Origin: Chrysochromulina tobinii
Lineage: Eukaryota; Haptophyta; Prymnesiales; Chrysochromulinaceae
Direction of reading: 5' to 3'
Length of the DNA stretch: 22,782 nucleotides
Assembly: GCA_001275005.1 (NCBI GenBank)
Contig: JWZX01002992.1
Span: 1 to 22,782 of the forward strand
Numbering within the stretch: position 1 is the stretch's first letter; each line of letters opens with the position of its first letter. The position numbers and the translations under genes were made by a program. The notes under the pieces are model-generated. The model was not told where the DNA came from. It ran no database searches and saw nothing but the letters and a program-made list of their open reading frames with translations. This document shows, piece by piece, positions 284-21,495 of this stretch.

Positions 284-2862
284 TCAGACAAACCGCATCA
301 TCGGGCCCGCACTCGCCTGCGCCCGTGCGAGCTGCAACACTTTGAGGACCTTGTCGGGCATGTGATCGGCCACACCGCGGTGCAGCGGCAGCCGGATGCG
401 TCGCAGCTGCGCGGCATCAGGCAGCTCCTCGGCACGCCACGTGCCGCGTCCGGTGCCGCGCCGAAGACGTATGAGGCGGCCAGGTGGCCAGAGCGGGCGC
501 TGGCGATCGGGGCGCGTCGCCCGATGCGACGCGAGCAGCTGGCGGGCTTTCTCAGAGGGGGGGTCGCCCGCACTTTCCCAGTCGACTGCCAACGCGAGCC
601 CGTCGGCATCCGCGTTGCCCTCGATGCACAGAGGCGGGGGCGGCGCGTGCACCCTCCCCGCGCGGCGACGCGTGCAGCCACACAGGGCGCTCGCGACGAG
701 GTCGTACGCAATCGCGGCCTTACTAGCACGCGAAAAGCAGAGTGCATGCAGAAGCTCATCTCGAAGGAGCTCTGTTGTCGCTAGGCTCAATGTGGGCACC
801 ACATCATTCTCAACGAAGACAGACGTGGTGAAGGCGCGGCTGGCGGCGGCCACGCCACGGGTGAGCATCCCGCCGGGCGGTGAGAACGCCACACAGCGCA
901 CGTCGACCTGATGAGCACGCGTCGCGTATCAGTAGAGCCTAATGAGGGAGGCAATCAGCACGCAATCACCACCTGATGAGCACGCCACGTGTCGCGTATC
1001 AGTAGAGCGAGCACGGCAGCGACGCCCGCCCCGAGCGAGTGGCCTGTGATGATGAGTGCAAATCCCTTGCAGCTCGATGTGTCTCCTAGGAGCAGACGAC
1101 CAAGCACTCCCGACCCCACCAGGGTGCGCTCGAGGGCCATCGCCGCCTTGCAGACCCCGCCGTGCGCTGCGGCCTTGCCATGGTCCGCAGCAGCCCCCTC
1201 AACGCCCGGTGGGAGCGGGTGCGGGTGCGCCATCGCGTCCGTCGCTATGTCGGTTACAGACAACGTGCCACGAATGGCCACGATCACCTCGCAGTGCTCA
1301 CGATCGACTAGCAAGCAAAAGGGCTTGTGCTCGAAAGTATTACTCCATTCGGCTGCACGCACCTCCACCGGTGCGCGGCGCCCCGATGCGCGGCCACGGC
1401 TCGTCGCGGCCTCCCCGCCGTTGGTCGCTCGTCGCTCGTGCGCCTCACGCAGTGTCTGGAGCAGAGCCACGTCATGCGCGCTCCTTCCCGCGCCCCGGAC
1501 GTCACCGCCAAGGGCTGCTGCCGTGCCTGGAGCGTCGTATCGAGCGCCGCTGCTAACGGCTCCGTCGCCATCGCTGTCGCCTCCTCTGGTACTGCAGGAG
1601 CGGAGACAGCACAGCGAGGCGAGCGCGCACGGCGCATGCACGCAGCACGTGCCGCGCAGCCGGTAAGCATAGAGCGGCCAGCCATACACGCCCATGCACG
1701 CCCACATCCATCGCTCAAGCTCCGCTAACCGCTCAGGCTCGTCGAAGGGCTGAGCGCCGTGCTGGGCGTCGAAGGGCTGAGCGCCGTGCTGGGCGTCGAA
1801 GGGTTGAGCGCCGTGCTGGGCGTCGAAGGGCTGAGCGCCGTGCTGGGCACCGGCCGCGAGAGGCATCGGCCGCGTTGCGTCCGCGTTCGACGCGCCGTGC
1901 TGGGCGCCAAACGAGCCGCCCTCGTCCATCCGATTAACGAAGCCGCCCTCGTCCATCCGAACGAAGCAATTAACGAAGCCTGAGCGATGATTGCCGAGGA
2001 CCGCGCTGCCGTGGAGCCTCTCGGGCGGGCCGCTGGGCGTGAGCTGCACATTCGTGCGCTCGATCTGCTGCGTGTGTTGCTCTGAGACGAGCACGAGGGC
2101 GGCGAGTAGGTCGTTGAATGTAAGGTCGAGTTCCGCAGGTACCACCGTCGCCAGTAACCTCGCGATCTGGGATTCAATCTGCTTCCAGTCGGAGCCATCG
2201 ACACCGCGCAAGGAGCAGAAGAACGTGGACGCAAACCGGCTGGACCAGCCCGTGGGCAGCGGCCTCGCCACCGGGCCGGTGGTCGACAGGTTGCCCAGGG
2301 CAATCGCCGACAGGAAGTCCTCTGCCACACTCGCGTGGGTCGTCGGGCCAAGTACGAAGAGCATGGACAGCACGCCGAGCATCCAGCTGCTCGCGTGCGC
2401 CCAGGCCACGACGCGCTGCGCGGTAATTAGCGCATCCACGCTGGTGCGAACCTCTTGATCGCAATAGTCCTTCTCGCCGGCGGTCGCTAAGTACAAACCC
2501 CAGCCGATTACGCCGGACTCAAGCATCTGCAGCACCAAACGCGCCGTCAGCAGCGGTGGCACGGTCTTCTGCCGCATCGGCACGCCACCGAGGATGCTCC
2601 CGTACGACGAAGCTCGCCACAGAAGGGCTTCGATCACGTAGTGACTGGCGTAAACTGACGTAACTGCGATGGCCCACGTGGTGAGAAAGAGGTCGCATCT
2701 GTTGCTCACACCACTCATGAAGCTTCGATCGAGGCCGAGAAAGATGATTGCGACCACGACCCCGAGCCAACCGATACGCATCGAGCACGCGAGAGCGGCG
2801 TACACGGCGAAGTCGTCCGTGCCAATGCGCCAGTCGCGGCCGAGCCATTGCATCGCCGGCAT
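284..2862 (-). CDS. sn-1-specific diacylglycerol lipase (DAGL-like), two exons
   Basis: Exons 2862-973 and 907-284 join across a 65-bp intron to give about 837 residues. The N-terminus starts MPAMQW and has four hydrophobic segments (about 19-46, 60-82, 103-127, 145-172), as in animal DAGL-alpha/beta. A region GVYGWPLYAYRL followed by a Cys-rich stretch (about 395-430) also matches that family. The class-3 lipase fold follows: IVAIRGT near 527-533, nucleophile elbow GHSLG with Ser609, VAFSPPGG just after the intron, the Asp of NDVVP (about 665) and the His of ADHMPDKV (about 812), forming a complete triad. The family hydrolyses the sn-1 ester of diacylglycerol to 2-monoacylglycerol at membranes. 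Length falls between DAGL-beta and DAGL-alpha. An inserted AQHGAQPFD repeat (4 copies) lies before the catalytic domain. It is divergent from the RhoGEF gene across 219 bp. The family call is strong; orthology within the family is not settled. Confidence 0.9.
908..972 (-). other. spliceosomal intron in the lipase gene, flanked by a duplicated exon segment
   Basis: On the minus strand exon 1 ends CATCAG and is followed by GTGGTG; the intron ends CTCATCAG before GTCGACGTGCGC. Its length (65 bp) is not a multiple of 3, and retention gives a stop after VVIAC. Removal joins AHQ to VDVRCVAFSPPGG, exactly the DAGL consensus. The last 36 bases of exon 1 plus GT (1008-971) recur at the intron end (938-906) with one 5-base gap, both containing GCTCTACTGATACGCGAC and GCGTGCTCATCAGGT. 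Between the copies is a 32-base core with two GATTGC motifs and CCCTCATTAG, related to the intron at 18237-18311. Confidence 0.85.
1741..1848 (-). repeat. 27-bp coding minisatellite, four copies (AQHGAQPFD)
   Basis: Four head-to-tail 27-base units (1741-1767, 1768-1794, 1795-1821, 1822-1848) with one substitution in the third copy. The period is a multiple of three, so the lipase reading frame stays open and encodes four AQHGAQPFD units in the linker between the membrane part and the lipase fold. Copy number is probably variable between strains. Confidence 0.95.
1915..1980 (-). repeat. short in-frame duplication in the lipase linker (VNRMDEGG-type)
   Basis: A segment beginning GCCGCCCTCGTCCATCCGA on the plus strand occurs at 1915 and again at 1942, each followed by a variant of ATTAACGAAGCC. 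On the coding strand it yields two near-identical peptides containing RMDEGG. It sits next to the 27-bp array, so this linker is a slippage-prone, probably disordered segment. Confidence 0.8.
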
Positions 2863-3081: not shown

Positions 3082-4932
3082 ATGGCCACCTTCACGGATT
3101 GGGTCTACCTGCCCGCGGACGATTCGGACGACCCCATGCACTACTACGCCAACTTGACAACAGGAGAATCGCAGTGGGATCGGCCGAGAGTGCTCGACGC
3201 CAACTGCGGAAGCGCCTCAGCGGCCGGCAAGACAACCTGTCAAGTTTCCGTGGTGGCCAAGTGGGTGGAGTTCATGGACGAGCATCATGGGCGTCCCTAC
3301 TTATACAACAACGAGACAGGCGAGTCGGCTTGGGTCCTCCCGGCGGACGAGGACGAGGACAAGCCGCAGTGCGAGGAAGAGGCTCCGTGCGTCAAGGTCG
3401 ACGAGGTGGCCAGGTCAGAGGTGGAGAAGGCGCTCGCCAAGACGGAAAAGCGCGCGGCACACCGGCTGAAGCTCCTCAAGGAGATCGTGAGCACCGAACA
3501 ATCATATGTGGACTCACTCCGCGCACTCAACAAGGTATACGTCGACCCGCTGCGCATGGTGGCTGACGTGCCCAAGGGTGCGATCTTCACGCATAATGAC
3601 CTGGACGCCATCTTCTTGAACATCACTGTGATCATCAAGGTCAACGAGGCCTTCCTCAGCGAGCTTCTCGAAGAAGAGAAGAAGTGGCCAAACGTCAATT
3701 ACGCGCCCATCCTCAAGAAGGCGGCGACCAAGTTCAAGGGCTGCTATACCCGCTACGTCAACAACTTTGACGACGCGGCGGGGAAGCTGCTCACAATCGG
3801 CACGTCAGACAAACCTGCGGACAAGGACAAGCTACGCTACCTCGTCGGCTCCGCGCGCCACCCCGACGCTAAGGGGCGCGACTTGCGCTCCTTCCTAATC
3901 CAGCCAGTGCAGCGGGTGCCCCGCTACCGCATGCTGCTCGATGAATTGCTCAAACACACCGACGAAGACCACGTGGAGCGCGCCGACATCCAGGAGGCGC
4001 TCGAGATGGTGATTACGCTCGCCAAGTCGTTCAATGAGGACAAGCGCGCTGTTGAGGACCACGCCATCCTCAAGGAGGTCTTCGAAATGTTTTGTGACAA
4101 GGACGCGAGAGACCTCAAGGCGGAGCTCAACTCGTTTGAGCGCAAGTTTGTCAAAGAGGGCTCCCTCGTCAAGCAGCGCCTATCGCACCGGCAGCGGCGG
4201 CAGCTCTTCTTGTTCAGCGACATCTTACTGTACGCTGAGGCGGGCATGGCCGGCAAGGGCTTCAAGCTAAAGGGCAAGATCCAACTGCTCGATGGCACGC
4301 GCGTCGAGTCGCTGCCGAGCACCGAGGACTCGCCGCATGCATTCGCCCTCGTCGAAAATGGCGGGAAGGGGTACACTTGGCTCGCCGAGTCCGCCGCAGA
4401 GAAGGACGAGTGGTTCCAGGCCATCGATGGCGCCATCCGGGCGGTGCGCAAGGCCGCCGACCTGGACGCGAGCGACGCGTCGGATCTGATTTCGATGGTG
4501 AAGAGCAAGAGGTTGCACGAGCGCATCGCCGTCCTGCAGGGTGGGAGCACGCTCATCAAGTACAACAACAGCGACGGCAAGTCGACGCCGCGCTGGGTAT
4601 GCGTGACCCTCGACAAATTCGGCGCCGCCGAGCTCATACGGTGGGGCGACACAAGGACCCAGGACTGCAAGTCGGAGAAGCGCCTTACCGAGGCCACCGC
4701 GCTCCTCCACGGCGCCAAGTCGTCCACCTTCTTCAAGCAAAAGGGCGTCAAGGCGGATCAAGACTGGCAGTGCTTCTCGCTAGTCTTCAAGGACCGCACG
4801 CTGGACTTTGCCGCCGCCACCGTGGGACTGCTGCTCGATTGGTACCTCGCGCTTGGGGCGCTGCTCCCGCACTCGACGGAGCAGATCCTCGATGAAGAGC
4901 AGCTGCGCGCGCGCATCAGTAGTCAGATGTGA
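3082..4932 (+). CDS. Rho guanine-nucleotide exchange factor: two WW domains, DH, PH and a C-terminal PH-like domain
   Basis: A single open frame of 616 residues starting in good context (CAATCATGGCC). Two WW domains lie at about 7-36 (WVYL...YYANLTTGESQWDRP) and 61-88 (WVEF...YLYNNETGESAWVLP). A DH/RhoGEF domain spans about 128-325, with the first conserved helix (LLKEIVSTEQSYVDSL) and the hallmark FLIQPVQRVPRYRMLL at 271-286. A PH domain follows at about 355-456 (EGSLVKQ, QLFLFSDILLY, final-helix Trp in DEWFQAI). Residues about 475-600 look like another PH-type fold (RWVCVTLDKFG, WQCFSLVFKDRTLDFAA), less certain. DH-PH proteins load GTP on Rho/Rac GTPases at membranes; WW domains bind proline-rich partners. 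WW fused to DH-PH is an uncommon order. The DH-PH call is firm; the GTPase target is unknown. Confidence 0.93.
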   Translation: MATFTDWVYLPADDSDDPMHYYANLTTGESQWDRPRVLDANCGSASAAGKTTCQVSVVAKWVEFMDEHHGRPYLYNNETGESAWVLPADEDEDKPQCEEEAPCVKVDEVARSEVEKALAKTEKRAAHRLKLLKEIVSTEQSYVDSLRALNKVYVDPLRMVADVPKGAIFTHNDLDAIFLNITVIIKVNEAFLSELLEEEKKWPNVNYAPILKKAATKFKGCYTRYVNNFDDAAGKLLTIGTSDKPADKDKLRYLVGSARHPDAKGRDLRSFLIQPVQRVPRYRMLLDELLKHTDEDHVERADIQEALEMVITLAKSFNEDKRAVEDHAILKEVFEMFCDKDARDLKAELNSFERKFVKEGSLVKQRLSHRQRRQLFLFSDILLYAEAGMAGKGFKLKGKIQLLDGTRVESLPSTEDSPHAFALVENGGKGYTWLAESAAEKDEWFQAIDGAIRAVRKAADLDASDASDLISMVKSKRLHERIAVLQGGSTLIKYNNSDGKSTPRWVCVTLDKFGAAELIRWGDTRTQDCKSEKRLTEATALLHGAKSSTFFKQKGVKADQDWQCFSLVFKDRTLDFAAATVGLLLDWYLALGALLPHSTEQILDEEQLRARISSQM

Positions 4933-8031: not shown

Positions 8032-8691
8032 CGGATTGCGCGTTCTGTGACGGGGGCCTCGGTCTTGCTGGGTACGCCAGTCTTCAGTGTGGTGTGAGAG
8101 ATGTTGTGAGGCACGGCACGTGGCGAGATCTAGGCGAGAGCAGAGATGATTGTCATCAGCGAGATCTAGGCGAGATCCGAGATGAATGTCCTCAGCGCCG
8201 ATCTAGGCGAGATCCGAGATTCCTCAGCGAGGTCAGGACGCTCGAACATTGAGGTGGGCCGCGGCACGGGTCACGACGGCCAAAGTATCCGATGATGTGC
8301 TGCACGTGCCGCGGCCAATGTGTGGGGTCTGGCCGGTGCGCGCACGTGAGTGTGCGTGATGGCTGATGGACAGATGGAGGCTCGGAGAACGTTTTGTTCG
8401 TAGGGCCTAGGGGCAAGAGAGAAGAGATGAAGAGTGCCGTGACTGAGGTGAGTGCTGTTGCGGAGTGCCGTTGCCGGACGCTCGTCGGCCAGAGAAAAGT
8501 ATCACGGTTGGATAGTTATCGCGGCTCGCGGGAGCGGACGCGCAGAGTGACCGGCGCGCATTACGCAAGGCGAAATGACGATTACTCAATATTCGATTTT
8601 ATGCGCGGGGAGACTTCAACGTGTTCAACCCGACCCGCCGGTTTCGGGGATCGCGATCGGGCGCGCCTTCTCTGGGCTCGGCTGGACGCAT
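8032..8691. other. 660-bp convergent spacer, no gene seen apart from a minisatellite
   Basis: This lies between the stop codons of two convergent genes. It contains the 36-bp repeat at 8124-8227 and otherwise unique sequence. Short open frames here have no protein-like features. Both 3' untranslated regions should fall here. Confidence 0.5.
8124..8227 (+). repeat. 36-bp minisatellite, three copies
   Basis: Units at 8124-8159, 8160-8195 and 8196-8227 (the last shortened to 32). Each contains ATCTAGGCGAGA and ends in a TCATCAG or CCTCAG sequence. The units are contiguous without spacers, so this is not a CRISPR array. Confidence 0.88.
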
Positions 8692-16026: not shown

Positions 16027-19000
16027 CGGCGTCGCTCCTGTATGGGGATCTCCTCGTACTCGTCCTCCTCATCGTCCTCGAAGTCCACGGCGGCCACCGC
16101 GCCCGGCCCACCTCTCACCACGGCCCCAGGACCGCCGCGTGCCACAGCACCTGGGCCACCGCGTTGTGATTCGGGCACGCCGAAACCGGCACCAAAGCCA
16201 CCGACGCTCCCGAAGCCCGACGCTCCACCAGCCGCAGCGCCCGGTCCGGCGCGGTAGGTTGGCGCGCCCGAGACGGCGCCGGGCCCGCCACTGGCGCCTG
16301 CGCCTCCTGTCGCTGCTGCGGCGGCAGGTGGCGGAGGTGCCGACTCCGGCTCAACGCCTGGCTCGGGTCCGATGCCAAGCATATCCGAACCAATCGATGC
16401 GAACCAGCGCGGCCTTGCCTTGAGCGCACGCCCTACGGCCTGCAGCCAGCGCGCGAGGTTCCACATCGAGAGCGGCAGAGCGTCTTTGCACGCCAGGGCC
16501 ACCTGAGCGAGCGAAAGGGGAGCGTGCGCGCGCCGCAGCACCCCGAGCATCGTGCGGGCCACCTCAACGTCGTCAGGCTCCTTGGCACCACTCGCCTTGC
16601 CACCACCGCTGCTGACGCCACCGCCGCTGCCGACGCCACCGCTCGCACCGCCGGCGCTCGCGCCGCCAGCACCGCTGCCGCCGATGGCGGCGCTGATCGC
16701 GGGCTGCTTGCTGCTGCTCGGCTTGGCGCTCGTCTCGGCGGCACTCTTGGCAATGCCGTTGCTCAGCTTGGGCTGCTTGGGCTCACGAGCGAGTGCTCCG
16801 ACGCTGCTGCCGTCCGCCGAGCGCTTCGTGGCGCCGCCGCCGCCGCCGCCATGGGCCGCCCCAGCCTTGTCGGTGACGCGAGGCGACTCCTCGGCGGCTG
16901 CGACGGGCTTCGGGCGCGGCGGCACTGCGAGTGCGGGAGGCTCAGCCGGCTTGGTGCCGATGACAGCACTCGCCGTGCGCTCCTTGCGCACCATTTGCTC
17001 GACGCGTTGCTCGTTGATCCTCTTGCCGAATTCCGCATACCCAGCGTCTTCGAGAGCCTCGATCACAAAGGTGGTCACGTGCTTCTCGAGCAGTGTCTCG
17101 CGCCGTACGCCGTACTTGACCGTCTCGGCGGGCAGGCGCGACCATGCCGACGAGCAGATCGTGTTGAAGAGCTTGACGGCCGTGCGCGGGTCGCGGTGCT
17201 CGCGGCAGCCCGCAAGGAGCTCGGCCGCATACCGTGTGAGTAGCCCGTCGCCTGTGAGCCACGAGCGCATGTGCGCCTCGCTCGTGCTCGACGCGCGCGC
17301 GAGCGGCGCGAAGTAGGCGACCGTCTTGGTGCACAGCCATAGCCCAGGCAGCAACTTACCGTCGGTGCCTCGCCGGTCGAGGTCGGTCGACCACGCGCGG
17401 ATCGGGCCGGCCCACACCCACGGGCGCGAGCCCCCTTCCTTATTCGGCAGCACGCGTGCCTTGACGTACACGTCGAGCTCGTCCGCACCCGCCGCCGACG
17501 GCACGGCCGCCGCCTTTTGCGCCTTCTGGGCCGCGCGCAGCGTGCCCTCGGGCAGCGTGGCGATGAGCGCGCGCGGCCCCCCCGCGCCGTCGCACAGCTC
17601 GAAGTCGGCGAGCATCATCACGGGCACCACGACACCCTTGGCGGACTCGAAGGGGTGCGCCTCCTTGCGCTCGTACACCGGAAGCATCGACTCACCTACG
17701 AGCGACACCTCAGGCATCGGGTTGTTGCGGTTGCCGCCGGGCGGCTTGTACAGCGGCAGGTAGGCCTCTGCCGGCTGCGTGAGGCGGTAGAGCGCCGAGG
17801 CGGTCTGCACCCAGAGCGCGGGCGGCGCGACGCTATAGTCCAGACGCGCCTTGAGCAGCGCCGTCGTGCGCACCCACACGCCGCCCGCAGCGCTCGCGGC
17901 GGCGTGACTGCCTGCGGCGGCGGCGGCGGCAGCGGTCGCAGACAGTGGCGGGCCGATGGTTCCAAGAACGCCGAGCGGCTCCGAGTCCGGCTGCCCGAGC
18001 GTCGGCAGCACCTCAAAAAGGTTCACAGGCTCACCTGAGGCGAGGCGCGTGACGCTGAACTGCGAGAGGATGCGCCGTGCCACCGAGGCGGGCGCTGGCA
18101 GCGGCGAACGCTCGACGGTCGCGATACTACTCGGGAGAAGCCGGTCGTCTATCGGCTGTTCCCTGGTGCCCGGCGGTTGCCAGCTCACGTCCAGCCGCGG
18201 CTTGAGGAGCACAAACCATGACGCGGCGGAGCGCACCTGATGAGGGTCGCAATCAGTGGCAATCAGTGGCAATCAGTGGCAATCACGAGAGCATGACGCG
18301 GCGGAGCGCACCCAGAGTTTGACCTTGCTCGGGTTGGCTGCGCCGTCGGGCAGTGAGGCGCCGCCGCCGCTGCCGCCCCCTTTGGAGCCCAGTGTAGCCG
18401 CCGTCTCGATCTGCAGCCGCCACTCGTGTACCGCGAGCGAGCGCATCCACAGGCGCGCGGGCACCCTCCTCCACGGGGAGCGAGCCCGCCGCCGCGACTC
18501 CCCTGCCGGCACCATCGGCATCGGCGCCGGTACCTTCGGCACCGCTCCCCTTGGGACGCTGTGCAGGCATCAATTGGCCGACGAGCTGCACGCTTGGCGG
18601 GGCGGTGGCCCCGGGCGGCCCCATCTCGGGGGGTGTGAAGAGCGCAAGTCCCTGCGGCAGGGCCGTGAAGAGGTCCGCTGGCTTGCCCGCTGCGTCGACG
18701 AAGAAAAAGGTTGAGGCGCGGAAGGAGGCGGTACCGCGCGCGCCGCTCGACGGGCTCGCGAGATCGGCTGCGTCCGCCGCCGCAAACGGGGCCATAGCCA
18801 CCTCGGGCAGCGCTGCGAGCCCGGCGCCTCGGGACGGCGGCACGGCTGGCACCGCGTACGCCCCGAGCACCGGCGAGCCGAGCAGCAACGGCTCGGCCAG
18901 CGGCGCGGAGGGCGCGGCGCCGGGAGGCTCCCACAGCATCCGCCCGACTGAAGCTGGGTAGAAAGAGGGGGGCGCCAAGCGCAGCCAGTACCAAGCATTG

Positions 19001-21495
19001 GGCGTGCGCAGCCAGAGCGATTGCAGGCGCAGCTGGCCCGCGTGCTGCAGCGCCCAGCCCGTCACCGGCGCCGTCACCACGTACCGCCACGCGGTGAGAT
19101 CGCCTTCAAAGCCGCCTGGCACCAGGATGCCGCGCATGCGCATGTGGCCGACCGGCCGGCGCGCGATGGCGAGTTGCTTCGGATCGGGCTTCGCGACACT
19201 CAATTCAAGCTCGAGCCGCTTGCGTTCAGCCTCAGCCTCCTCCTCCTGCTTCTTCTTCTCCTGCTCCTGCTTCTTCTTCAGAAGCGCCGCGGCCCAGGCC
19301 GAGGTGCTGCCCACGCTCGCCACAGCGGCCGCTGCCGCCTCGCGGGCCGCCTCCGCACGATGGCCCTTGCCGCCCGCCGCCGCACTCGGCGGCGATGGCA
19401 CAGCCGGCGCGGCGCTGCTCGCCGCGGCCGTAGCACTACTGGCGGTGGCCGCCGCCACCACTTCTTCATCGCTTGAGTCGACATCCGCGCTGCTCTTGGC
19501 GCCCGCTTTCACGGCAGCTCCCTTGGCCTTGGTGACAGCAGCCTTAGCTCCATCGCCCGTCTTGCCGGCACGCTTGACTTCCTTGTCTTCACGCTTGACT
19601 TGCTTGTCTTCACGCTTGACTTCCTTGTCTTCACTCTTGACTTCCTTGTCTTCACGCTTCACTTCGCGCTTCACTTCGCGCTCTTTCGCCTTCTCCAGGC
19701 GCTCTTGCCCGCGCGCCTCCGCCTCCGCCTCCTTGGACGCCGCCGCCGCAAGCGCCGCAGCCGAAGGCGCCCGCTTGCGCCCAGACGAGCGTCCGGCTAC
19801 CTCTTCGGCGACCGCGGCACCAACTTCGTCCGATGACGGCACTGCGTCCACGTCAAGCTCAGCGGCCTCCTCGGGCAGGTCCACGCCCGGCTTTGCGGCC
19901 TCCTCGGGCGGGTCCTCTGCCATGAAGGCCTCCTTGGGGCAGACCTGATCTGGGGAAGCCTCCTCAGCCTTCACAGCCTTGCCGCCATGAAGATCGGCAT
20001 CTGGGGACGCCTCCTCAGCCTTCACAGCCTTGCCGCCATGAAGATCGGCATCTGGGGACGCCTCCTCAGCCTTCACAGCCTTGCCGCCATGAAGATCGGC
20101 ATCCGAATTGGCCGTCGCGTCCTCCACGCGCGTCGGGGTCTCGCCGCTGCCGCCCTCGCTGCCCTCCTTGGCCGCCGCGCCGTCATCGTCGACGTCCATC
20201 GTCGATGCATTCGCCTCGCGGATGGCGTGCACGAGCGTCTCATCCTTTGGGCGCGCACCCTCACGCTGCTTCCCGCGAGCGCTGCTCGAGTGGGCGGCGC
20301 CAACGGACGCAGACGACGTGAGCCCCGCCGCCTCCGCCTCCCTCGCCTCCGCCTCCCTTGCCTCCTCCTCCCTTGCCTCCCGCTCGATTTGAAGCAGCGC
20401 GACCCGCTGCGCCTCCTCCTGCGCGGCCTTGAACTTGGCGGCGGTCGTGCGCGGGTCGTCCTCCCAGTCCGCCTTGACCGCACGCCTTCTCTGCTTCAGG
20501 TCGGGCTCACCCTCAACCTTCTCCTCCTTCTCCTCCTTCTCCTCCCCGTCCTCCTCCTCCTCCTCGTCCTCCTCGTCCTCCTCCTCCTCCTCGACTCCCC
20601 ACACCTCATTCCTGGCCATCCGCTCCTCGGGCTTCTCACATGAGTTGCGCTGCGTGTTCGGGTTCATATAGCAGAACCACTTTTCGGGTAGGGCCGTCTC
20701 CTCGTACTCGGGCCCGGCGGGCAGCCGGCGCCACTTTTCGCACCGGTCGCACTGCGCCCAGTTGCACGTCTCTGGCTCCTCGTCCGTCTCGCCCTCGCCC
20801 TCCTCCTCGCCCTCCTCCGCGCCCTCCTCCTCGCGCTCCTCCTCGCCGCCGCCGCCGCCTTCCTTGCCGCCGGCCTCGTCTTTGCTTTCAGATTCCTTGC
20901 CGCCGGCTGCCTTGGCCTTCTTGCGCGGCGCACGCTCCTTGGGCTCCTTAGGAGCCTTGGGCACCCTGGGCACCTTCTCCTTCTTCTCTTTGACTGGCCG
21001 CGGACCCGCCGACTTGCGCTTCTTACTGTCCGCGTCGCTTTCGAGCTCGAGGCGCACGAGAGGATCGCCGGCTGCGGCTGCGGCCGCCGCCGTGGCTGCG
21101 GCACCCGCGTCCTCAGCCGCCGCCGCCGCTGCCGCCGCCACGCCCTCAGGAGGTAGCTCAGAGGCACCTGGTGAGCCGAGCAGCTTGCCTAGCCATTCGA
21201 ACGCCACAGGCAGGCCAGTGGCATCGGTCAGAAAGAATTCAGCGAGTTGCAGACACGGGAGGGTGCGCAGCGCGGGCTGAATGCCGTCCGCCGGCGGAGC
21301 CACCTCGATCGACAGCAGGCTCGCGTCGCCTCCTAGCTCAGCAAGCATCTCCTCCTCGGAAATTGGCCGCGGCGAGCGTACCGCGCTCGGCTGACTGCAC
21401 GTCGGGCAGCGTACGCTGGCGATCGCGCCATCCACGAAATCAAGAGGAAGCTCGCGCGTCTTCTTGCAGTGGTGACAGTAAAGGCACGCCACCAT
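16017..21495 (-). CDS. CW-type zinc-finger protein with multiple DNMT1 replication-foci-domain-like modules
   Basis: Starts at ATG 21495 (MVACLYCHHC, a CxxC...CxxC zinc-ribbon-like N-terminus, residues 4-33). A CW zinc finger lies at about 246-290: W246, C249, C252, W255, C275, C286. CW domains usually read methylated histone H3 Lys4. Acidic runs, Lys-rich repeats and a long Glu/Arg helix follow. The second half carries repeated pairs of FF-V-DA-G-PADLFTALP-type and LW-RT-AWY-L-PS-Y-type sequences: about 18980-19110, 18640 across the intron to about 18180, 17750-18065, and 17270-17630. These resemble the RFTS/RFD module of DNMT1-class proteins, but no methyltransferase motifs are present. Exon 1 ends at 18312 and exon 2 runs 18236-16017. 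A frame change at about 18480-18575 must be another intron or an indel. A nuclear chromatin-reader role is inferred. Confidence 0.8.
18237..18311 (-). other. spliceosomal intron with TGATTGCCAC tandem repeats and duplicated flanks
   Basis: On the minus strand CTCTGG is followed by GTGCGC, and the intron ends CCCTCATCAG before GTGCGC. Removal of 75 bp joins KVKLW to VRSAASWFVLLKPRL; retention gives a stop. The 20-base segment GTGCGCTCCGCCGCGTCATG occurs both at the intron start and at the start of the next exon. Between the copies are a GTGATTGC word and a 10-bp tandem repeat (TGATTGCCAC, about four units), then CCCTCATCAG, matching the core of the intron at 908-972. Confidence 0.88.
18480..18575 (-). 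other. unresolved frame change in the CW-finger gene
   Basis: Upstream, the protein reads FFFVDAAGKPADLFTALP and PPSVQLVGQLMP in one frame. Downstream, RLWMRSLAVHEWRLQIETAA reads on to KVKLW in the frame shifted by one base. The DNA between encodes GAG/ADADGAG-type low complexity with GGTGCCG repeated. Several GT...AG pairs of length 1 modulo 3 exist (for example GTACCGG to CCGGCAG, 31 bp, unusually short), and a one-base indel is equally possible. Confidence 0.6.
19571..19654 (-). repeat. 21-bp coding repeat, four copies (VKREDKE)
   Basis: Units CGCTTGACTTCCTTGTCTTCA-like at 19571, 19592, 19613 and 19634, with degenerate continuation to about 19682. In the CW-finger protein they encode a charged heptad of Val-Lys-Arg/Ser-Glu-Asp-Lys-Glu/Gln type, likely helical or disordered. 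Confidence 0.9.
19948..20100 (-). repeat. 51-bp coding minisatellite, three copies
   Basis: Near-identical units at 19948-19998, 19999-20049 and 20050-20100 encode three copies of a 17-residue peptide containing LHGGKAVKAEEASPD. The unit length keeps the frame. The near identity of the copies suggests recent expansion or homogenisation. Confidence 0.93.

What the first reader, a model, noticed from the sequence alone, without database searches (positions are those of the whole stretch)
18217..18311. Second intron with the same core and its own flanking duplication: a possible introner-like family
The intron at 18237-18311, in an unrelated gene 17 kb away, has a 20-base direct duplication of host sequence on both sides. 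Its core shares GTGATTGC, CTGATTGC and CCCTCAT-Y-AG with the lipase intron. Aligned over about 31 positions after removing extra 10-bp repeats, roughly four fifths of bases agree. Shared core plus different, host-derived flanking duplications points to a mobile or copying intron family. Known introner elements in algae carry target duplications, usually shorter than those here, so the long duplications may be a distinct mechanism.
Basis: partly seen in the sequence, partly recalled or inferred. Interest (0 to 1): 0.88.

Follow-up and report, generated by a model that had tools for sequence, protein, structure and literature searches.

The report
Mobile half-introns with long target duplications
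In this marine alga thousands of introns look as if a tiny piece of DNA carrying only the end of an intron was copied into genes, the missing beginning being supplied by a duplicated stretch of the gene itself, which is an unusual way of making introns.

Summary
Observation confirmed. The 75-nt intron at 18237-18311 (minus strand) lies between exact 21-bp copies of host sequence. Removing it restores the frame, and three orthologues read through the site. Its 3' end recurs at 4,232 places (up to 2 mismatches; reversed-pattern control 1) in this 53-Mb haptophyte assembly. An unrelated second family, F2 (2,312 places, control 0), has the same plan.

Both are minimal 3' splice-site cassettes: branch-point-like motif, pyrimidines, AG. 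The 5' splice site comes from the left copy of a long, variable duplication (11-46 bp in 53 clean copies). An upstream copy of the downstream exon was found at 67 of 136 F1 sites (controls 6 of 408) and 35 of 52 F2 sites (5 of 156), tandem arrays included. F2 has a sharp 5' end; no inverted ends were seen.

Best reading: an introner-like 'half-introner'. How it moves is unresolved: SINE-like retroposition, or break repair copying intron ends. The large survey I read asks for similarity at both intron ends and, as written, would miss it. No RNA evidence of splicing was found.

The parts
18237..18311 (-). intron, 75 nt, GTGCGC...CATCAG
   Evidence: frame restored on removal, in-frame TGA if retained; orthologues continuous
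18292..18312 (-). left (5') copy of the 21-bp duplication; holds the 5' splice site G|GTGCG
   Evidence: 100% identical to 18217-18237
18217..18237 (-). right (3') copy of the duplication; start of the downstream exon (its first G is the last base of the intron)
18238..18291 (-). inserted cassette, F1 family: short filler CTCTC, GTGATTGCC, 10-bp units, CCCTCATCA
18246..18285 (-). 10-bp tandem units (ACTGATTGCC), each with a branch-point-like CTGAT (function inferred)
18237..18252 (-). shared F1 3' end TTGCGACCCTCATCAG
   Evidence: exact form TTGCNNCCCTCATCAG at 1,644 places, relaxed form at 4,232
18312..21495 (-). upstream coding sequence, CW-type zinc finger; frame shifts near 18460 relative to P0063
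16020..18236 (-). downstream coding sequence of the same gene
908..972 (-). second F1 intron in the window (lipase gene), 65 nt, GTGGTG...CATCAG
   Evidence: frame restored on removal; Lipase_3 domain in the ORF
939..972 (-). cassette of the lipase intron, GTGGTGATTGCGTGCTGATTGCCTCCCTCATTAG
   Evidence: sequence
906..938 (-). right copy of the lipase duplication
971..1008 (-). left copy of the lipase duplication, with 6 extra nt

Best explanation
The intron was made by inserting a short non-autonomous cassette that carries only the second half of an intron: a branch-point-like CTGAT unit (here in 10-bp tandem), pyrimidines and AG. The insertion duplicated a long, variable stretch of the target exon (11-46 bp in the clean set). 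The left copy supplies the 5' splice site (G|GT) and enough length for a working intron (medians about 80 nt); the right copy keeps the coding sequence. Splicing out left copy plus cassette restores the original mRNA. At least two unrelated cassette families follow this plan at thousands of places. SHOWN: anatomy, copy number, local duplications, common strand of neighbours, frame restoration at the two window introns, orthologues that read through. INFERRED: that splicing occurs in the cell and that cassettes are copied in trans. WEAKER INFERENCE, how the copy is placed: about 0.4 SINE-like target-primed retroposition of a short RNA (variable duplication, no inverted ends, defined cassette ends), about 0.35 break repair or template switching that copies ends of existing introns, about 0.25 a DNA transposase with an unusually wide stagger. 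Selection for correct splicing would explain why the duplication mostly starts at the GT next to the cassette's AG.
For: F1 3' end 4,232 places, control 1; F2 head 2,312 places, control 0. Duplications: F1 67 of 136 vs 6 of 408 controls, F2 35 of 52 vs 5 of 156. In 53 clean copies the duplication starts with GT in 41 and GC in 4. 1,104 of 1,644 exact F1 ends are followed by GT, 1/16 expected. F2 5' end sharp: in 24 recognised copies conservation falls from 0.67-1.0 inside to 0.42 just outside. Two F2 fillers searched genome-wide gave only their own loci, so no donor flank was seen to travel. Neighbours 150-1,500 bp apart share strand: F1 31 of 31, F2 24 of 24 among the listed places. Frame restoration and orthologues.
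Against: No duplication at the threshold in 69 of 136 F1 and 17 of 52 F2 sites, read as age but not shown. 540 of 1,644 F1 ends are not followed by GT. F1's 5' end is blurred: first TGAN from -1 to 32 nt after the duplication. F2 pyrimidine tracts are nearly unrelated between copies (mean similarity 0.48), which a recent single master would not predict. The F2 head is about as conserved where no duplication is seen (mean 1.67 of 24 mismatches, n=15) as where one is (1.12, n=33), so part of it may be held by splicing function. 14 of 26 clean F2 copies have 4 or more unexplained bases, or diverged duplication, before the head. No transcript across the junction was found. No autonomous partner was identified.
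Confidence: 0.62

Rival explanations
1. Not a transposon: staggered breaks in exons are filled in (giving the duplication) while the gap is patched by template switching into the 3' ends of existing introns. Only patches that bring a branch point and AG up to a GT survive.
For: Variable duplication length; each F2 copy has its own pyrimidine tract, as if there were many donors; repeated events at one start in L012 with duplications of 12, 23, 39 and 39 bp; weak excess of similar F1 cores within a contig (share at >=0.8: 0.067 within, 0.027 between; 7 of 1,000 permutations). Daphnia precedent of direct repeats at gained introns (PMC3443670, passages).
Against: F2's sharp 5' end; no donor flank carried in 2 of 2 fillers searched; mean within-contig similarity not significant for F1 (92 of 1,000) and none for F2 (680 of 1,000).
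Confidence: 0.3
2. A classical introner: a MITE-like DNA transposon with inverted ends and a short fixed duplication.
For: Introners of this kind are common in aquatic protists (PMC9860276, abstract and passages).
Against: Duplications of 11-46 bp, not fixed; by eye F2's ends (GCATGCAAG, CCCCACAG) are not inverted repeats; the 5' half of each intron is host sequence.
Confidence: 0.04
3. Reverse splicing of whole spliced introns into new places, as proposed for fungal introner-like elements.
For: Sense orientation relative to neighbours; conserved 3' end at AG.
Against: A whole-intron copy would carry the donor's 5' half and need no duplication; neither fits.
Confidence: 0.02
4. Plain tandem exon duplication (AGGT model) plus a shared splice consensus; no mobile cassette.
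For: Tandem duplication creating introns is an accepted route (PMC3443670, passages); tandem arrays of duplication plus cassette occur here (L010, L012, L054).
Against: The sequence between the copies is a shared cassette, not exon; motifs of 16-24 nt recur thousands of times against controls of 0-1; at most 12 of 27 F1 and 13 of 26 F2 clean targets have A two bases before the GT.
Confidence: 0.02

Closest known systems
Introners / introner-like elements (PMC9860276: abstract, passages, sections 15 and 17 seen)
   Same: Many similar introns in unrelated genes; insertion into exons that leaves the mRNA unchanged; in some families one splice site comes from the target duplication.
   Different: Here only the 3' half is shared; duplications 11-46 bp instead of 3-9 bp; no inverted ends; cassettes of about 20-60 nt. 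The Chrysochromulina family shown there has 4-bp duplications and carries its own 5' splice site, the reverse arrangement.
Intron gain in double-strand-break repair, Daphnia type (PMC3443670, passages)
   Same: Direct repeats flanking the new intron, explained by fill-in of staggered ends.
   Different: There the repeats are short and the insert is filler; here the same cassettes recur thousands of times.
Tandem genomic duplication of an AGGT exon segment (PMC3443670, passages; PMC4974935, listing and start of abstract only)
   Same: Duplicated exon supplies a splice site and the coding sequence is kept.
   Different: Here a foreign cassette lies between the copies and brings branch point and acceptor.
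Direct repeats near splice sites (PMC11782384, passages)
   Same: Direct repeats at intron borders; mean 11.4 bp, reported for all 213 introns examined there.
   Different: Those are short and of many positions, with no shared cassette; ours were scored against cross-locus controls.
Introns of Micromonas and of Amoebophrya (PMC3443670 and PMC7789003, passages)
   Same: Micromonas introners lie only along the sense of transcription; Amoebophrya introns carry direct repeats.
   Different: Amoebophrya has 3-5-nt direct repeats and 8-20-nt inverted repeats.

Membership tests
Introner | many sequence-similar introns at unrelated places in one genome | tested here: met
Introner | intron gained by insertion into an exon, mRNA unchanged | tested here: met
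   for this one site: frame and orthologues; not tested genome-wide
Introner (survey definition, PMC9860276) | similarity reaching both the 5' and the 3' intron end | tested here: not met
   5' part is locus-specific duplicate; criterion as
Introner, MITE-like | terminal inverted repeats | tested here: not met
   F2 ends compared by eye only
Introner, DNA-transposon type | short target duplication of fixed length (3-9 bp in earlier families) | tested here: not met
   11-46 bp, variable
Introner | spliced in RNA | tested here: inconclusive
   one protein search for a junction-spanning product found none; no RNA data held
SINE-like retroposon | variable-length target duplication, defined element ends | tested here: met
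   (F2; F1's 5' end is blurred)
SINE-like retroposon | A-rich or simple-repeat 3' tail and RNA intermediate | tested here: inconclusive
   no A-rich tail seen in the F2 rows; an RNA intermediate is not testable here; 26 RVT_1 matches in the genome, no link
Reverse-spliced fungal introner-like element | whole donor intron copied, no target duplication | tested here: not met
Tandem exon duplication | the whole new intron is duplicated exon | tested here: not met
   cassette between the copies

The most novel reading that the evidence does not exclude
A separate class of intron-making element: cassettes as short as about 20 nt that carry only a branch point and a 3' splice site, insert with unusually long variable target duplications, and draw the whole 5' half of each new intron from the gene they enter. 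Unrelated families share one insertion process in a haptophyte. Because only the 3' halves are alike, surveys that ask for similarity at both ends miss them, so recent intron gain may be undercounted across eukaryotes.
Probability: 0.5. Interest if true: 0.88.

Novelty: new variant of a known kind. Interest (0 to 1): 0.78.

Why it matters
Where introns come from is an old open question. Here some introns are young enough that the target duplication is still exact, sites number in the thousands, and two unrelated cassettes share one plan, so splice-site recruitment, minimum intron length and insertion chemistry can be read from sequence. It also suggests a simple change to surveys: cluster introns by their 3' halves and test whether the 5' half is a local duplicate. 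That could reveal intron gain that is now invisible.

Tried and rejected
Viral carriers: an exact 19-mer of the repeat had no match in viral contigs. The F1 end matched one contig (L089): a single isolated match without the unit repeats, outside the ORFs of 200 aa or more, judged chance. The F2 head matched one 4,554-base contig (L090), which ends like an F2 intron, perhaps stray algal DNA; not pursued. Prokaryote genome contigs: 0 matches to one F1 pattern. Rfam on the window at gathering scores: 0.

Donor tracing: two F2 fillers searched with up to 3 mismatches; each found only itself.

Length trade-off: duplication and insert length looked negatively correlated (F1 rho -0.39, p 0.04; F2 rho -0.79, p 2e-6), but for F2 measured from the cassette head it fades (rho -0.21, p 0.28, n=29). 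I treat it as largely an artefact of diverged duplication ends.

Local copying: for F1 the share of very similar within-contig pairs is raised (7 of 1,000 permutations) but the mean is not (92 of 1,000); for F2 neither (466 and 680 of 1,000).

Spliced product: the junction-centred search returned only P0064, which by its sequence lies in exon 2.

Rows dropped and biases: one search dropped 18 of 154 sites near locus ends and keeps tandem arrays. One search's 35 of 52 include some rows where the repeat is cassette or neighbouring-intron sequence (L080, L104). One search's figure is for 24 of 47 inner-core matches, chosen by at most 3 head mismatches; of the other 23, 6 have 4-5 mismatches and 17 have 6 or more. 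One search cut 229 rows to 53 by score, divergence, tandem arrays and cassette words in the duplication; it is anchored at an AG and so under-samples other arrangements. One search's 103 rows hold many coding repeats and served only for examples. One search uses the first 100 listed places each; its pairs closer than 150 bp (F1 14 same, 0 opposite; F2 10 same, 1 opposite) may be tandem copies. Sampling: one search took good matches to the window, searches took places early in the hit lists; only (20 arbitrary 10-kb regions) is free of that.

Full report
WHAT IS THERE. On the minus strand the gene reads AAACTCTGG|GTGCGCTCCGCCGCGTCATG, then CTCTCGTGATTGCC and further 10-bp units, then CCCTCATCAG|GTGCGCTCCGCCGCGTCATGG. 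The 21-mer GGTGCGCTCCGCCGCGTCATG is exact on both sides. Retained, the 75-nt segment puts TGA in frame; removed, the protein reads SKVKLWVRSAASWFVLLKPRLD. The gene encodes a CW-type zinc finger protein. P0060 (61% over the aligned part) and P0061 (47%) align across the site without interruption (its output was cut before P0062), and P0062 reads KVWVRSAASWFLLLKPR there. P0061's longest contig is 24.8 kb, so its gene is probably genomic and intron-free at this point. P0063, close to identical to the window's exon 1, runs into the intron and stops at VRSAASCSRDCH: the intron is also in another assembly. Its cluster counts 72 sequences; whether all carry the intron is not known.

HOST. The assembly has 53.15 Mb in 2,253 contigs. 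For the RhoGEF protein at 3082-4929 the closest relatives with names are Prymnesium parvum (47%) and an entry whose name is cut after 'Scyph', read as Scyphosphaera (45%). So this is a haptophyte, probably a metagenome-derived assembly; the species is unknown.

FAMILY SIZE. CTGATTGCCACTGATTGC: 499 exact hits, control 0. TTGCNNCCCTCATCAG: 1,644; followed by GT: 1,104, 67% where 6% is expected. GATTGCNNCCCTCATCAGG with up to 2 mismatches: 4,232, control 1. Family F2 begins GCATGCAAGTGCTCACCACGGCGC and runs through pyrimidines to CACAG: 833 exact hits of a 17-mer and 2,312 places with up to 3 mismatches of the 24-mer, controls 0. A variant F1 end occurs 119 times. These are places, not insertions: tandem copies are included. 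In 20 arbitrary 10-kb regions there are 6 exact F1 ends and 4 exact F2 heads, in 7 of the 20 regions, in line with the genome-wide exact counts. [quoted passage not shown]

DUPLICATIONS. 67 of 136 F1 sites carry an upstream copy of the downstream sequence at score >=12, against 6 of 408 cross-locus controls; F2: 35 of 52 against 5 of 156. Fisher p values are 5e-40 and 1e-21, but sites within a locus are not independent and tandem arrays are included. In the unanchored F1 search the most frequent start, tandem arrays apart, is the cassette/exon boundary (17 at offset 0, 6 each at -1 and +1, 4 at -2; 27 at the -6 edge are array copies whose match runs into the cassette; 93 of 136 in all at score >=12, the rest scattered). 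In 53 clean copies (27 F1, 26 F2, anchored at an AG) the duplication starts with GT in 24 and 17 and GC in 1 and 3. The base before is G in 22 of 27 and 20 of 26; the base before that is A in 12 and 13, so the target is G|GT more than AG|GT. Median length 21 bp (F1, 11-44) and 25.5 bp (F2, 14-46); predicted introns 80 and 77.5 nt (medians).

EXCEPTIONS. In the lipase intron (908-972) and in some F2 copies (L019, L094) the AG|GT or AG|GC lies inside or at the far end of the duplication. Insertion followed by selection for correct splicing would leave this. 540 of 1,644 exact F1 ends are not followed by GT; some are internal tandem repeats (L061) or GC starts (L015, L025), the rest were not sorted.

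CASSETTES. F2's 5' end is sharp: in 24 recognised copies from loci not fetched by its head, conservation is 0.92-1.0 at eight of ten positions (0.71 and 0.67 at two) and 0.42 one base outside; copies were recognised by that head, so the inside figure is partly by choice. In 9 of 26 clean copies the duplication ends at or overlaps the head; 14 of 26 have 4 or more bases between, some clearly diverged duplicate, some unexplained. Two unexplained fillers were searched genome-wide and found only at home, so no donor flank was seen to travel. F1 is built of 10-bp units; a one-unit copy with an exact 29-bp duplication lies in L042; its 5' end is blurred. CTGAT in F1 and CTCAC in F2 could serve as branch points at a usual distance from the AG: inference. 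Listed neighbours 150-1,500 bp apart share strand in 31 of 31 F1 and 24 of 24 F2 pairs; with pairs under 150 bp, 45 of 45 and 34 of 35.

MECHANISM. The pattern speaks against plain consensus, plain tandem duplication, reverse splicing of whole introns, and transposons with inverted ends and short fixed duplications. What remains is insertion of a copied 3' splice-site cassette with a long duplication. Variable duplications without inverted ends are most familiar from target-primed reverse transcription (recalled), and reverse transcriptase genes exist here (26 matches; one with RNase H), but no link to the cassettes was found. Against copying from one recent master, F2 pyrimidine tracts are nearly unrelated between copies, and the F2 head is about as conserved where no duplication is visible. 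Break repair copying the ends of existing introns is therefore a live alternative. In L012 four duplications of 12, 23, 39 and 39 bp share one start: repeated events at one site, at least one of them a plain tandem copy.

NOVELTY. Papers seen: PMC9860276 (abstract, passages, sections 15 and 17); PMC7789003, PMC12768974, PMC11782384, PMC3443670, PMC11167929 (passages). Searches with introner alone and with haptophyte, target site duplication or branch point, and with intron gain, direct repeats flanking and tandem duplication listed no title or abstract start describing this class; I judged the other papers by listing only, lists were capped, and preprints and most subscription papers are not held. 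PMC9860276 requires, as written, similarity near both intron ends and drops low-complexity families, so F1 and F2 would be missed even if this assembly was in its set, which I could not determine.

VERDICT. By effect it is introner-like; by the survey definition it fails one tested feature, so I call it a new variant, not a member. The insertion chemistry is open.

Noticed in passing
8123-8220: Three copies of GATCTAGGCGAGATCCGAGAT (36-37 bp apart) alternate with GATTGTCATCAG-like words between genes: perhaps a worn F1 array outside coding sequence.
   Followed up: no
near 18460: The window has one extra G relative to P0063 (VEEVPARLW), which breaks the frame just upstream of the intron: sequencing error or a real allele.
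   Followed up: partly
1740-1874: 27-bp tandem repeat GTCGAAGGGCTGAGCGCCGTGCTGGGC in the lipase ORF; its complement resembles the F2 word CACGGCGCTCA.
   Followed up: no
19966-20100: Coding tandem repeat, about three units of 51 bp (17 aa) by eye; also picked up.
   Followed up: no
L010, L012, L054, L068: Arrays in which duplication plus cassette repeat in tandem two to four times, in L012 with different duplication lengths from one start.
   Followed up: partly
L015, L022, L025, L105: Copies whose duplication starts with GC instead of GT, suggesting GC-AG introns.
   Followed up: no
L094, L059: F1 units directly upstream of an F2 head: mixed cassettes.
   Followed up: no
L090 4495-4554: A 4,554-base contig filed as viral ends in an F2-like intron: stray algal DNA, or a virus carrying a host intron.
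   Followed up: no
L035 (C650:1-10000): Very dense in TGATTGCC/CTGATTGC units on both strands (29 and 5 TGATTGCC, 25 and 17 CTGATTGC).
   Followed up: no
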